The position numbers were made by a program, and so were the translations under genes. A stretch of DNA of 54,569 nucleotides, taken from a bacterium. GTDB lineage: Bacteria; Bacillota; Clostridia; Lachnospirales; Lachnospiraceae. Location: NCBI GenBank assembly GCA_023663725.1, contig JAMPGX010000004.1:1-54569 (forward strand), written 5' to 3'. A model generated the notes under the pieces. It saw nothing but the letters and a program-made list of their open reading frames with translations. It did not search any database and was not told where the DNA came from. Positions 5,996 through 50,577 of the stretch are shown piece by piece; position 1 is the stretch's first letter, and each line of letters starts with the position of its first letter.

Positions 5996-7771
5996 TTAAG
6001 GGATCTTATAGCCCATCTGCTTCAAAATATCTATCAACTGCTTCAGAGGCATTTCCCCCAGATCCCGGCTGCCTTCCGGTGCGTCTCTCCATCTGACAGA
6101 CACGGTGCCATTTTCCCGCTCTTTTTCTCCCACGATGACCATATAAGGAATCTTATCCATCTGCGCTTCCCTGATCTTGTAACCCAGTTTCTCGTCCCTT
6201 TGGTCGATCTCAGTGCGGATACCCTGTCCCTGTAATAGCAGCTTTACCTCCCTCGCATAGTCCATATACTTGTCGGAGACTGGCAGTACCTTAACCTGTA
6301 CAGGGGAGAGCCACAGGGGGAATTTTCCGGCATAGTGCTCGATCAGGATACCGATAAAGCGCTCGATGGAGCCAAATATCACCCGGTGTATCATGATGGG
6401 GCGGTGTTTCTCGCCGTCCGCTCCGATATATTCAATATGGAATCTTCTCGGCAACTGAAAGTCCAACTGAATCGTTCCGCACTGCCAGGTTCTTCCGATG
6501 GAATCCTTCAGGTGAAAGTCCAGCTTAGGCCCGTAAAATGCCCCGTCGCCCTCGTTTACCGCGAAAGTCTTGCCCATTCCTGTGACCGCGTCCGCCAGCG
6601 CTTGGGTGGCAAGCTCCCACTCCTCGTCGCTTCCAATGGAATCCTCGGGTCGGGTGGAGAGCTCGATTTCATAGGAAAATCCAAATACCGCATATACCTC
6701 GTCTATCAGACGCACAACTCCCTGGATTTCGTCCCGTACCTGCTCCTCGGTCATAAAGATATGGGCGTCGTCCTGGGTCAAACAGCGCACCCGCATCAGA
6801 CCGTGGAGGGTTCCCGATGCCTCGTTCCGGTGTACCAGTCCCAATTCTCCCATCCTCATCGGGAGGTCGCGGTAAGAGCGGGGCTTAAGACGGTAGACCA
6901 ACATACCGCCGGGACAGTTCATGGGGCGTATGGCAAAATCCACACTGTCAATCACCGTGGTATACATCTTATCCCGATAATGCTCCCAGTGGCCGGAGGT
7001 CTCCCATAGCCCGCGGTTCATGATCATGGGGGTGGCAATCTCCACATAGCCCTCTCGGGTATGAATCTTGCGCCAGTATTCGATCAGTAGATTCTTGATG
7101 ATCAGTCCTTTGGGCAGCAGGAAGGGAAATCCCGGCCCCTCATCCATCAGGGCAAACAACTCCAGCTCCCTGCCCAGCTTGCGGTGATCGCGAGCCCTCG
7201 CCTCCTCCAGCCTGTGCAGATATTCCTGCAAATCGGCGTTCTTGGGGAAGGAGATGCCGTATATCCTGGTCAACATCGGATTCCTTTCATCTCCCCGCCA
7301 ATAGGCTCCGGCGATGGACAGCAGCTTTAAAGCCCTGATGGGGCTGGTGTTGGACAGATGAGGACCTGCGCATAACTCCGTGTAATTCCCCTGCCTGTAA
7401 AAAGTGATCTCCTCGCCGCCTGGCAACTCCCGAATCAACTCCAGTTTGAAGTCCTCTCCTTCCTGCTCCATATGGGCCAAAGCCTCCTGCCTGGACACCG
7501 CCCGAACCTGCAGGGACAGCGATTCCCGCACCAGCCGGCGCATCTCCTCCTCCACCGCCCGCAGATGCTCTTCCGTAAAAGAGAAAGAAAACGCAAAGTC
7601 ATAATAGAATCCGTTGTCCGTCGCCGGACCGATTGCGCATTTCGTGTCTGGATACAAACGCTTTACTGCCTGCGCGAGCAGATGGGCGCTGGTGTGCCAA
7701 AACGCTTTCCTCCCCTCCGAACTGTCAAAATCTGAGCTGGTAATCTCTCCGTTCCTGTGTAGAATCTTCAT
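5996..7771 (-). CDS. thrS: Threonine--tRNA ligase lacking the TGS domain
   Basis: It charges tRNA-Thr with threonine. The 591-residue protein has the editing domain (HTSAH near residue 27, TELCAGPHL near 130), the class II catalytic core with motif 2 (LVHRNEASG region), MNCPGGM, the HIFMTEEQ stretch and motif 3 (IMIHRVIFGSIERFIG), and the C-terminal anticodon-binding domain (VKVLPVSDKYMDYA onward). The usual N-terminal TGS domain of about 60 residues is absent: the protein starts about where the editing domain begins. Short ThrRS forms of this kind exist in Clostridia, sometimes as a second copy. AAAGGAG precedes the ATG. A Thr T-box leader lies more than 500 nt upstream, with two structured repeats in between. 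Confidence 0.95.
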   Translation of the reverse strand: MKILHRNGEITSSDFDSSEGRKAFWHTSAHLLAQAVKRLYPDTKCAIGPATDNGFYYDFAFSFSFTEEHLRAVEEEMRRLVRESLSLQVRAVSRQEALAHMEQEGEDFKLELIRELPGGEEITFYRQGNYTELCAGPHLSNTSPIRALKLLSIAGAYWRGDERNPMLTRIYGISFPKNADLQEYLHRLEEARARDHRKLGRELELFALMDEGPGFPFLLPKGLIIKNLLIEYWRKIHTREGYVEIATPMIMNRGLWETSGHWEHYRDKMYTTVIDSVDFAIRPMNCPGGMLVYRLKPRSYRDLPMRMGELGLVHRNEASGTLHGLMRVRCLTQDDAHIFMTEEQVRDEIQGVVRLIDEVYAVFGFSYEIELSTRPEDSIGSDEEWELATQALADAVTGMGKTFAVNEGDGAFYGPKLDFHLKDSIGRTWQCGTIQLDFQLPRRFHIEYIGADGEKHRPIMIHRVIFGSIERFIGILIEHYAGKFPLWLSPVQVKVLPVSDKYMDYAREVKLLLQGQGIRTEIDQRDEKLGYKIREAQMDKIPYMVIVGEKERENGTVSVRWRDAPEGSRDLGEMPLKQLIDILKQMGYKIP

Positions 7772-7799: not shown

Positions 7800-8001
7800 T
7801 AGGCGTTTGCGAAGGCCAGGTACTTTGCTGGTGTCATTGTGTACATTGTACATTCCAACGCGGACACGCTCTCGCTTCGTTCTCACTGTAGCGGTACATA
7901 AGATGCTAAAGGACAGCATCGAGGGTTGCTAGCAACCCTAGGTACCGACAGTTCGAAAGAGTCCGCTTATGGAATATACAATATACACAATTCGGTACTA
8001 A
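7800..8001 (-). repeat. Dispersed structured repeat, copy A
   Basis: This is one of four complete copies of a ~150-210 nt element (others at 8107-8316, 37452-37658 and 50357-50507). Read on the minus strand, it begins at AGTACCGAATTGTG and ends at TTCGCAAACGCCTA. The termini pair in a 22-bp helix (two G-U pairs on this strand), then an internal loop and GCGGAC/GTCCGC. Inner hairpins are GGGTTGC/GCAACCC and GATGCT/AGCATC; the second is an insertion relative to copy E. It lies between the Thr T-box and thrS, in the sense of the thrS transcript. Confidence 0.85.
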
Positions 8002-8106
8002 CAAAAACGGTTATACAAACGTCTACAATGTCTTCTAGGCAAATACAAAATGTTGTTTGCCAGAGACTGAAAAATGTCTTTAGACAATTGCCAAACAGTC
8101 CTATAC

Positions 8107-8316
8107 CAGTACCGAATTGTGCATATCATGTATTCCATAAGCAGGCTTCGTGCAACAAAGTTGCACCTGAAAAACGTCGGTACTTAGCGAGGTTTGTCGA
8201 ATTTATTCGGCACGAGCTTAGTACCGCTACGTTTTTCACGAAGCGAGAGCGTGCCTGCGTTGGAATACATGATATACACAATGACACTAGCAAAGTAACT
8301 GGCCTTCGCAAATGCC
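8107..8316 (+). repeat. Dispersed structured repeat, copy C
   Basis: A full copy of the element in the opposite orientation to copy A and about 105 nt from it. The terminal helix has base pairs different from the other copies (C-G, A-U and G-C at helix positions 12, 13 and 15) and one C-A mismatch at position 7. The next helix is GCAGGC/GCCTGC. Inner hairpins are TGCAAC/GTTGCA and TGAAAAACG/CGTTTTTCA enclosing GGTAC/GTACC. Because A and C are inverted, a long thrS leader transcript could pair them with each other. The 8002-8106 spacer holds small inverted repeats (GGCAAA/TTTGCC) and nothing recognised. Confidence 0.85.
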
Positions 8317-8340
8317 CAAAGATAGGGTTGCAACAACATA

Positions 8341-8383
8341 AGAAAAGCACCCAAAAGACGATAATACACAGTCTTAAGGGTGC
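8341..8383 (-). terminator. T-box terminator
   Basis: On the minus strand GCACCC...GAC pairs with GTC...GGGTGC and is followed by TTTTCTT. The 5' side of the stem overlaps the T-box antiterminator bulge region, as expected for the alternative fold. Confidence 0.75.
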
Positions 8384-8598
8384 ATCTGCACGGTTCCACC
8401 TTAACTTTTCACTTCAGATTCCAATAAATCCTATCCTTTAACGCAGGCATACGGCAACGCTTACATTTACATTCGGCGCTGCAGCTCGGGAATGGTTTTC
8501 GTCTACAGTCCTCATAAGCGGCTCTCACCAGTGTGCCGCTCTCTCTGGATGATTCGTTGTAAACTACTCTTTTCCGTCATGGCTTTTCTTATGTTATT
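8341..8598 (-). ncRNA. T-box leader (Thr) for thrS
   Basis: This is the riboswitch-like leader that lets uncharged tRNA-Thr relieve termination upstream of thrS. On the minus strand, 8400-8387 reads GGTGGAACCGTGCA, the T-box sequence that pairs with the tRNA acceptor end. It is followed by a terminator made of GCACCC (8383-8378) and GGGTGC (8352-8347), with an inner GAC/GTC pairing and TTTTCTT. Upstream lies a stem I-like region with an AGAG...GTAG start and a candidate specifier ACC (Thr) at 8496-8494 within GAAAACCATTCCCGAG. Its start is set by the promoter at 8605-8633. The terminator lies about 570 nt before the thrS start codon, an unusually long gap. Confidence 0.85.
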
Positions 8599-18748: not shown

Positions 18749-18795
18749 CCCAGGCGTTTGCGAAACCTGGTGACTATGCTGGTGTCAATGTGATA
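18749..18795 (-). repeat. Truncated dispersed repeat, copy D
   Basis: On the minus strand this is only the 3' end of the dispersed element (CACATTGACACCAGCA, then GGTTTCGCAAACGCCT). The long helix partner is missing. It lies in the 5' leader of the secreted GH51 gene, in sense orientation. Confidence 0.6.
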
Positions 18796-37451: not shown

Positions 37452-37658
37452 TTAGGCGTTTGCAAAAACCTAGTTACTTTGCTAGTGTCATTGTGCACAT
37501 AGTATATTCCAACGCGGGCACGCTCTCGCTTCGTTCTCACTGTAGCGGTACATAGGGTTGCTTGCAACCCTATGTACCGACAGCTCGTGGTGTTACGGTT
37601 ATAAACCGTAACATGAAGCCCGCTTATGGAATATACTATATGCACAATTCGGTACTGG
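37452..37658 (-). repeat. Dispersed structured repeat, copy E
   Basis: This is the most regular copy. On the minus strand it starts CCAGTACCGAATTGTG and ends TTTGCAAACGCCTA. The terminal 22-bp helix has one G-U pair and the rest Watson-Crick, with C-G at position 7 and A-U at position 12 where copies A and F have U-A. The next helix is GCGGGC/GCCCGC. Inner hairpins are GTTACGGTT/AACCGTAAC and a perfect GGTACATAGGGTTGC with its complement. It lies just beyond the stop codon of the histidine kinase gene at 37689, on the same strand, so it would be in that operon's 3' end. Confidence 0.88.
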
Positions 37659-37688
37659 AAAAAACTGCTTTGCAATAAACCGTTATTT

Positions 37689-50169: not shown

Positions 50170-50206
50170 ACAACCACTCTTTGCACTGCATATTGATCTA
50201 CAGTAC

Positions 50207-50287
50207 AAACTGAGCAGACCGTGGCACACGCCATGGGGTCGGGTCACGGAAGTGACAGTGGAAGCTTACATCCACGGGACAGTAGTT
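50207..50287 (+). ncRNA. NiCo-type (czcD) riboswitch aptamer
   Basis: The stretch has the pattern I recall for the NiCo riboswitch: AACTGAGCAG at the 5' side, GTCGGG in the middle, and a final hairpin AGTGG...CCAC followed by GGGACAGTAGTT. AACTG pairs with CAGTAGTT to close the aptamer. These riboswitches bind Co2+/Ni2+ (and possibly iron) and turn on CDF exporters. The terminator at 50269-50315 shares the 3' part of the aptamer, as expected for a transcriptional on-switch. Confidence 0.75.
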
Positions 50288-50315: not shown

Positions 50316-50356
50316 ATACTTGTATAACAGTAGACAATCGCGAAACCCTTTACCTG

Positions 50357-50507
50357 CAGTACCGAATTGTGTATATTGTATATTCCATAAGCAATGCCTC
50401 GTGTTACGGTTTGCAACCGTAACACCACGAACCGAGAGCGTGCTTGCGTTGGAATGTACAATGTACACAATGACACTCGCAAAGTAACTGGCTTACGCAA
50501 ATGCTTA
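50357..50507 (+). repeat. Dispersed structured repeat, copy F
   Basis: The shortest full copy (~151 nt). It starts CAGTACCGAATTGTG and ends near ACGCAAATGC. The 22-bp helix contains two G-U pairs on this strand; the next helix is GCAA/TTGC. One inner hairpin, GTTACGGTT/AACCGTAAC, is present; the GGTAC hairpin of other copies is missing. It lies between the NiCo-type riboswitch and the CDF gene, in sense orientation. Confidence 0.85.
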
Positions 50508-50577
50508 GGTATAACAGAGTGGTGAGGAGAATTAACTTTGGCGATGGATGCCATAGAGCGGCAATGAGGAGGTCAGC

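What the first reader, a model, noticed from the sequence alone, without database searches (positions are those of the whole stretch)
37452..37658. Dispersed ~150-210 nt element with compensatory base changes
Four full copies (7800-8001 minus, 8107-8316 plus, 37452-37658 minus, 50357-50507 plus) share both ends and differ inside. The ends form a 22-bp helix. At helix position 12 the pair is U-A in copies A and F, A-U in E and C-G in C; at 13 it is G-C or A-U; at 15 A-U or G-C; at 9 it is U-G or U-A. The next helix is GCGGAC/GTCCGC, GCGGGC/GCCCGC, GCAGGC/GCCTGC and GCAA/TTGC. The changes keep pairing, and the wobble pairs are all on one strand, which argues for selection on RNA structure on that strand rather than on a DNA palindrome. 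The inner hairpins are swapped or added between copies. I know of no described family that fits.
Basis: seen in the sequence. Interest (0 to 1): 0.85.

Follow-up and report, generated by a model that had tools for sequence, protein, structure and literature searches.

The report
Mobile structured-RNA repeat of gut Lachnospiraceae
The repeat is a small mobile DNA element, scattered about a hundred times in this genome and often sitting just in front of genes, that carries a folded RNA-like core found across a large family of gut bacteria and not listed in the RNA family database checked.

Summary
The genome carries about 110 copies. A start codon lies 20-42 nt past the 3' end in 49 of 101 copies. 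Three of the four window copies lie between a known regulatory RNA (NiCo riboswitch; T-box) and its gene.

Compensatory change is far stronger than four copies could show. In 38 sequences from 32 genomes, 40 of 44 pairs change on both sides and 95.5% of cells pair (71.1% shuffled, 26-46% slid, alignment fitted to the model). G.U outnumbers A.C on one strand. One hairpin keeps a GNRA loop in 68 of 74 rows. A covariance model hits 153 of 397 genomes of the family; in a class-wide sample all 11 hits were in that family. Rfam has no match at its cut-off.

No transposase was found; what the fold does is inferred.

The parts
7800..8025 (-). full element copy A incl. both outer inverted repeats; its 3' end lies 28 nt before the start codon of a threonyl-tRNA-synthetase-like gene
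   Evidence: (R1 138.5 bits at 7835-7992)
8081..8318 (+). full element copy C, facing copy A 5' to 5', inside the T-box/synthetase leader in antisense direction
   Evidence: R1 91.3 bits at 8115-8283
37453..37685 (-). full element copy E (the finding's coordinates), between a GH43 gene and a histidine kinase gene that converge
   Evidence: (R1 94.6 bits at 37489-37649)
50331..50507 (+). full element copy F, lacks the inner P4 hairpin
   Evidence: R1 68.6 bits at 50365-50472
50322..50330 (+). left copy of target duplication GTATAACAG of copy F
50509..50517 (+). right copy of target duplication GTATAACAG of copy F
18751..18792 (-). 3'-end relic of an element, just upstream of an arabinofuranosidase gene start
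   Evidence: (23.2 bits)
50200..50284 (+). NiCo riboswitch upstream of copy F (context, not part of the element)
8373..8589 (-). T-box leader upstream of copies C and A (context)
5996..7771 (-). threonyl-tRNA-synthetase-like gene downstream of T-box and copies C, A (context)
   Evidence: PF00587, PF03129, PF07973
50578..51489 (+). cation efflux gene downstream of NiCo riboswitch and copy F (context)
   Evidence: PF01545, PF16916

Best explanation
This is a family of non-autonomous (MITE-like) mobile elements that carry a conserved structured core. SHOWN: an element of 150-323 bp (101 own copies) with imperfect inverted repeats at both ends; target duplications; preferred insertion about 30 nt upstream of start codons; ~110 copies in this genome; a core fold (long helix P1, helix P2, a bulged hairpin P4 with a swappable tip, and a short GNRA-capped hairpin P5) that covaries and is conserved in many genera of the family, also in copies without these inverted repeats; pairing bias for one strand. 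INFERRED: a transposase recognises the ends in trans and places the element in the 5' leader; copies facing the gene are co-transcribed; and the fold is selected as RNA of active copies, most likely because a protein or the mobilisation machinery recognises it, rather than for a job at each insertion site. The G.U bias looks the same whichever way the neighbouring gene lies, which points to selection in the propagating lineage. This last inference is the weakest (about 0.35 on its own).
For: Target duplications in 31 of 101 copies, 0 of 300 control pairings. The two ends cross-match as inverted repeats. Three contigs break inside one identical 5' end and two inside one identical 3' end; two of the pairs of flanks match as duplications, which suggests young copies (the missing middle was not seen). 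Start codons at 20-42 nt in 49 of 101 (right) and 12 of 101 (left); with controls, right 47 of 95 against 3-20 of 93-95 at shifted positions. 14 of 101 copies (11 at 25 bits or more) have another element's 3' end 8-13 nt upstream on the same strand, i.e. repeat hits on one site. A second, 143-bp family shares the end sequence and, by eye, has duplications. Covariation: own copies, 14 sequences from six genomes, 38 sequences. Terminal-branch changes WC>GU 57, WC>AC 26, WC>other 20, double WC>WC 37; unpaired sites show no such bias. G.U:A.C cells 41:11 with the gene on the right, 14:3 on the left, 24:8 unassigned (two highly variable pairs left out, cells not independent). GNRA in 68 of 74 rows. 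Covariance-model hits in 153 of 397 family genomes.
Against: No autonomous element or transposase was found in this assembly or in the loci looked at. 70 of 101 copies show no duplication at the score used. The left-side start-codon signal (12 of 100) is little above its controls (2-10), so some of the 16 'left' copies behind the 14:3 figure may be wrongly assigned. The 3'-end-towards-gene bias of this genome is not seen in other genera (5 right, 6 left). 44 of 74 relatives' rows lack the inverted repeats even under a loose rule, so mobility of those is not shown. P1 transversion-type double changes equal transition-type ones, which a pure RNA-selection model does not predict. Among changes seen in only one copy, G.U and A.C are about equal (my reading). 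Paired columns change no more slowly than unpaired ones (209 changes in 70 columns against 135 in 54). No expression data.
Confidence: 0.6

Rival explanations
1. Pure DNA explanation: an ordinary MITE with a long quasi-palindrome. The double changes come from template switching or inter-copy recombination that re-perfects the palindrome; no RNA is selected.
For: P1 is nearly pure Watson-Crick with arbitrary sequence in each lineage (1146 WC, 45 GU, 10 AC, 30 other cells). Transversion-type doubles are as common as transition-type in P1 (26:25), and one copy (window 8109+) gained three compensated pairs on one branch. Palindromic MITEs are common (recalled).
Against: Template switching would remove G.U as well as A.C, yet G.U is in excess. 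P2 and P4 double changes are mostly transition-type (15:2). A GNRA loop with varying letters (GAAA, GAGA, GCAA, GGAA) and at times a re-paired closing stem is kept. The core sequence is better conserved across genera than P1 (median identity 61% against 38%).
Confidence: 0.2
2. Exapted cis-regulator: inserted copies act as leader RNA (attenuator, insulator of the Shine-Dalgarno, or stability element) for the gene next door, and that is what keeps the fold.
For: 3' end close to starts with orientation bias in this genome. Three of four window copies sit between a riboswitch or T-box and its gene.
Against: The G.U bias does not seem to depend on gene orientation (few left copies). Other genera show both orientations. 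The few neighbour genes typed are of different kinds. One window copy lies between convergent genes (37453-37685). No Rfam leader reached cut-off at 20 more loci.
Confidence: 0.15
3. The fold is used as single-stranded DNA (hairpin substrate) during transposition or replication, as in ssDNA-transposing elements.
For: Strand-specific structure shared by copies in both gene orientations. The inverted repeats themselves pair in the predicted folds. The + strand is the more stable one with DNA energies too, 87 of 103.
Against: Target duplications do not fit single-strand insertion, which makes none (recalled). The RNA energy contrast is larger, 98 of 103. The GNRA loop class is an RNA habit (recalled), though GCGAAAGC is also a stable DNA hairpin (recalled).
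Confidence: 0.12
4. A member of an already described repeat or RNA family that the databases searched do not hold.
For: BOX of Streptococcus pneumoniae is similar in style (PMC3049150). Rfam's Clostridiales-1 gives a sub-threshold hit in locus L194. Two own copies in L003 give sub-threshold hits to the plant microRNA model MIR2950 (32.1 and 23.7 bits, cut-off 76).
Against: The Clostridiales-1 hit is at 1154-1296, not at the element (1501-1641), and the window copy has none. MIR2950 is far below cut-off and I take it as a long-hairpin artefact. No Rfam match at cut-off. No plasmid or phage match. Paper searches named no such family in their listings; subscription papers and supplements were not searched.
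Confidence: 0.1

Closest known systems
BOX elements of Streptococcus pneumoniae (PMC3049150: passages, parts of the abstract among them, and section 6 seen)
   Same: ~125 copies, short interspersed, modular inside, inverted ends that pair in the fold, target duplications, RNA structure predicted from an alignment of copies, no sure autonomous partner
   Different: different host and gene-distance pattern: BOX-to-gene distances follow the decaying spread of intergenic lengths, not a fixed distance; BOX is almost confined to S. pneumoniae and S. mitis with a related set in S. suis, whereas here one core spans 136 of 334 genera sampled
RUP / Correia / ERIC-type bacterial MITEs (RUP from PMC3049150; the others recalled)
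   Same: non-autonomous, inverted repeats, target duplication, imperfect palindrome
   Different: those make TA duplications (recalled), not ~12 bp, and I recall no family-wide covarying core for them
bcr1 repeats of Bacillus cereus group (recalled; only a search listing seen)
   Same: mobile-looking, structured, ~150 nt, chromosomal (recalled)
   Different: other sequence and host; short duplication (recalled)
Clostridiales-1 RNA (RF01699; PMC2864571 passages)
   Same: structured RNA of gut Clostridiales
   Different: no match to the element itself

Membership tests
bacterial MITE | terminal inverted repeats | tested here: met
   5' and 3' profile HMMs cross-match each other's ends on the opposite strand
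bacterial MITE | target-site duplication | tested here: met
   31 of 101 vs 0 of 300 control pairings; lengths 8-15 bp, 18 of the 31 at 12-14
bacterial MITE | short, many copies, no transposase inside | tested here: met
   150-323 bp in 101 own copies, ~110 in all; too short for a transposase gene
bacterial MITE | an autonomous relative with the same ends | tested here: inconclusive
   none found in the own assembly or in G325:C85, where a 3.4-kb end pair held only ordinary genes; short contigs seem to be missing from the own assembly (inferred)
structured RNA family | covariation beyond shuffled and slid controls | tested here: met
   A1 was aligned without a structure but its structure was predicted from it, A3 was fitted to the model
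structured RNA family | a transcript of defined length | not testable with these tools
   no RNA data
Rfam 15 families (incl. Clostridiales-1) | match at gathering score | tested here: not met
   sub-threshold MIR2950 hits on two copies
BOX repeats | boxA/boxB/boxC sequence modules | not tested
   no BOX model was run; similarity is of style only

The most novel reading that the evidence does not exclude
A family-wide mobile element whose spread depends on a structured RNA of its own: the core RNA is recognised in trans and takes part in mobilisation or in steering insertion to the stretch just upstream of the ribosome binding site, so that the core survives while helix P1 and the inverted ends are rewritten from genus to genus.
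Probability: 0.2. Interest if true: 0.95.

Novelty: new variant of a known kind. Interest (0 to 1): 0.8.

Why it matters
If right, more than a third of the sampled genomes (153 of 397) of a dominant gut and rumen family carry a structured repeat, mobile at least in part, that can sit in gene leaders and that Rfam does not list. It would affect gene annotation, leader and riboswitch biology, and genome assembly there. The preferred distance to start codons raises a testable question: how a transposon finds gene starts.

Tried and rejected
Autonomous partner: lone ends and contig ends in the own genome, other end-like sites, and a 3.4-kb pair of ends in G325 gave no transposase. Promoter boxes: in 62 gene-oriented upstream flanks, -10-like sites are spread out, 1-9 per 5-nt bin; the highest bin (9) lies within the duplication, which is AT-rich, so targeting to the transcription bubble is neither shown nor excluded. 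Plasmids and phages: no match. Viral contigs: no exact match to two patterns. The 15-nt 5' motif itself is near-private to this genome: 97 hits at up to one mismatch, at most 3 in any other of 397 genomes, so spread only shows with the ends or the fold. Relative G397: four 5' matches against one in the control, no 3' match by pattern, yet three diverged full copies and a short one by sequence. Clostridiales-1: rejected as identity. A mutational cause of the G.U excess: not supported, unpaired sites show none. Casposon-like integration was thought of because of the long duplication; not tested.

Rows dropped: one search used 101 of 104 parsed copies (100 distinct; the three dropped lacked an anchor or had a different spacing). 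Lists were capped at 100 of 117 and 100 of 110 places; only listed places were fetched. Three of the 22 relatives' and own elements gathered that have large inserts, and the distant G325 forms, were left out of alignment A1. Counts on A3 and A4 lean towards the structure.

Full report
Observation. The own genome (3.63 Mb, 49 contigs, 96% complete; probably a metagenome assembly, inferred) holds 117 matches to the 3' end with up to three mismatches, against 7 for the reversed pattern, and 110 to the 5' end against 0. The lists show 100 places each. I fetched the listed places and found 101 copies with both ends by profile HMM.

True ends. The consensus 5' end is TAGACAATTGCGAAACTGTTTTTTGCCAGTACCGAATTGTG and the 3' end is GGGTTTCGCAAACGCCTA. 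The two end profiles match each other on the opposite strand over about 60 nt in many copies, at low scores, so these are imperfect terminal inverted repeats.

Mobility. Direct duplications flank the ends in 31 of 101 copies at a score reached by 0 of 300 shuffled pairings. They measure 8-15 bp, and 18 of the 31 are 12-14 bp. Three contigs end inside one identical 5' end and two inside one identical 3' end, and two pairs of flanks match as duplications. That suggests young copies whose middle the assembly lost. A second repeat of 143 bp shares the end sequence and, by eye, has duplications. So this is a MITE-like group. No transposase was found. No contig under 16 kb turned up among those I saw, so absence here is weak evidence.

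Insertion site. A start codon with a Shine-Dalgarno lies 20-42 nt to the right of the 3' end in 49 of 101 copies and to the left of the 5' end in 12 of 101. The same caller at shifted positions gives 3-20 of 93-95 on the right, against 47 of 95 unshifted, and 2-10 of 99-100 on the left, against 12 of 100. The right-hand signal is firm and the left-hand one weak. Reuse of the site after its upstream DNA was replaced suggests that the target is read from the gene side. In the window, copy F lies between a NiCo riboswitch with a terminator-like site and a cation-efflux gene. Copies C and A lie between a T-box and a threonyl-tRNA-synthetase-like gene. Copy E lies between convergent genes.

Structure in the own genome. 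For 35 pairs in 100 distinct copies (99 own), 98.0% of cells pair (shuffled 92.3%), 22 pairs have double changes, and G.U cells outnumber A.C 174 to 36. On terminal branches of a tree, Watson-Crick pairs change to G.U 57 times, to A.C 26 and to other mismatches 20 times, and to another Watson-Crick pair 37 times. Unpaired sites show no matching bias: C>T 20, G>A 32, A>G 17, T>C 13. G.U:A.C is 41:11 where the gene is on the right, 14:3 on the left and 24:8 unassigned, leaving out two highly variable pairs. These cells are not independent, and given some left copies may be wrongly assigned. The + strand folds better than the - strand in 98 of 103 copies with RNA energies and 87 of 103 with DNA energies (two of the 103 come from a relative). 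Against a simple RNA story: P1 double changes are half transversion-type (26 of 51), which cannot pass through a wobble, while P2 and P4 doubles are mostly transition-type (15 of 17). Paired columns change no more slowly than unpaired ones.

Spread. The exact 5' motif is nearly private to this genome. A 16-mer of the outer end occurs in 22 of 392 genomes of the order, with 70 hits in one other genus. Elements in G658, G094, G188 and G060, and more distantly G325, have other P1 sequences but the same plan. An alignment of 14 sequences from six genomes (MAFFT, structure then predicted from it) gives 44 pairs: 94.0% paired against 79.3% shuffled and 24-49% slid, and 26 pairs with double changes. 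A covariance model from it hits 153 of 397 genomes (136 of 334 genera) of the family at E <= 1e-4. Only eight candidates were scored per genome, so copy numbers are floors. A refined model on 391 genomes of the class hits 11, all in the family. With 38 sequences from 32 genomes, 40 of 44 pairs change on both sides and 95.5% pair, against 71.1% shuffled and 26-46% slid (fitted alignment). P1 median identity is 38% against 61% for the core, and 68 of 74 rows have a GNRA loop in the short hairpin.

Carriers. Of 74 relatives' rows, 21 have both inverted repeats under a loose rule (up to four changes in 16), 9 one, and 44 none. Of the 21, 11 have a start codon 30-34 nt from an end (5 right, 6 left), and 10 have a duplication score of 8 or more; no shuffled control was run there. 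Core and carrier are thus separable, and mobility of the 44 is not shown.

Known families. Rfam 15 has no match at cut-off in the window, in 20 further own loci or at the relatives' elements. At E <= 10 the finding's copy has only weak hits. Two copies in L003 have sub-threshold hits to a plant microRNA model, taken as a hairpin artefact. A Clostridiales-1 hit in L194 starts about 350 nt away from the element's start. BOX of S. pneumoniae is the nearest in style (PMC3049150; passages and section 6 seen). I saw no paper naming this element in the listings of searches of open-licence papers, nor in the passages seen of PMC8040213 and PMC2864571. That is not proof that none exists.

Mechanism. 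I commit to a MITE-like carrier placed upstream of ribosome binding sites by a transposase not seen here, with a core kept as RNA in propagating copies. The first half is well supported, apart from the missing transposase. The role of the RNA is inference.

Noticed in passing
L117, L119, L122-L125, L129 (own genome): A second repeat family of about 143 bp shares the end sequence TAGNCAATTGCGAAAC and, by eye, has ~12-bp duplications; some copies lie just upstream of Shine-Dalgarno sites (L125, L129).
   Followed up: partly
window 18751-18792 (-): A solo 3'-end relic of the element lies just before an arabinofuranosidase gene.
   Followed up: partly
L194:1154-1296 (+): A sub-threshold match to Clostridiales-1 RNA (40.9 bits, cut-off 48) lies a few hundred nt from a core copy; whether the two elements are linked is open.
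   Followed up: partly
L159 and L150 (genomes G099, G533), L144 and L182 (G099): Short elements (about 67-150 bp) with the same inverted ends but without the core, as if a minimal form of the carrier.
   Followed up: no
L120, end of contig C44 of the own genome: A 143-bp-type end is followed by GGGGCTGTGAAAAAAGTCCCC and then the contig ends; possibly an insertion sequence inside a repeat copy.
   Followed up: no
L201:1501-1875 and L197:2411-2762: Pairs of core copies in opposite directions side by side, with quite different P1 sequences in L201.
   Followed up: no
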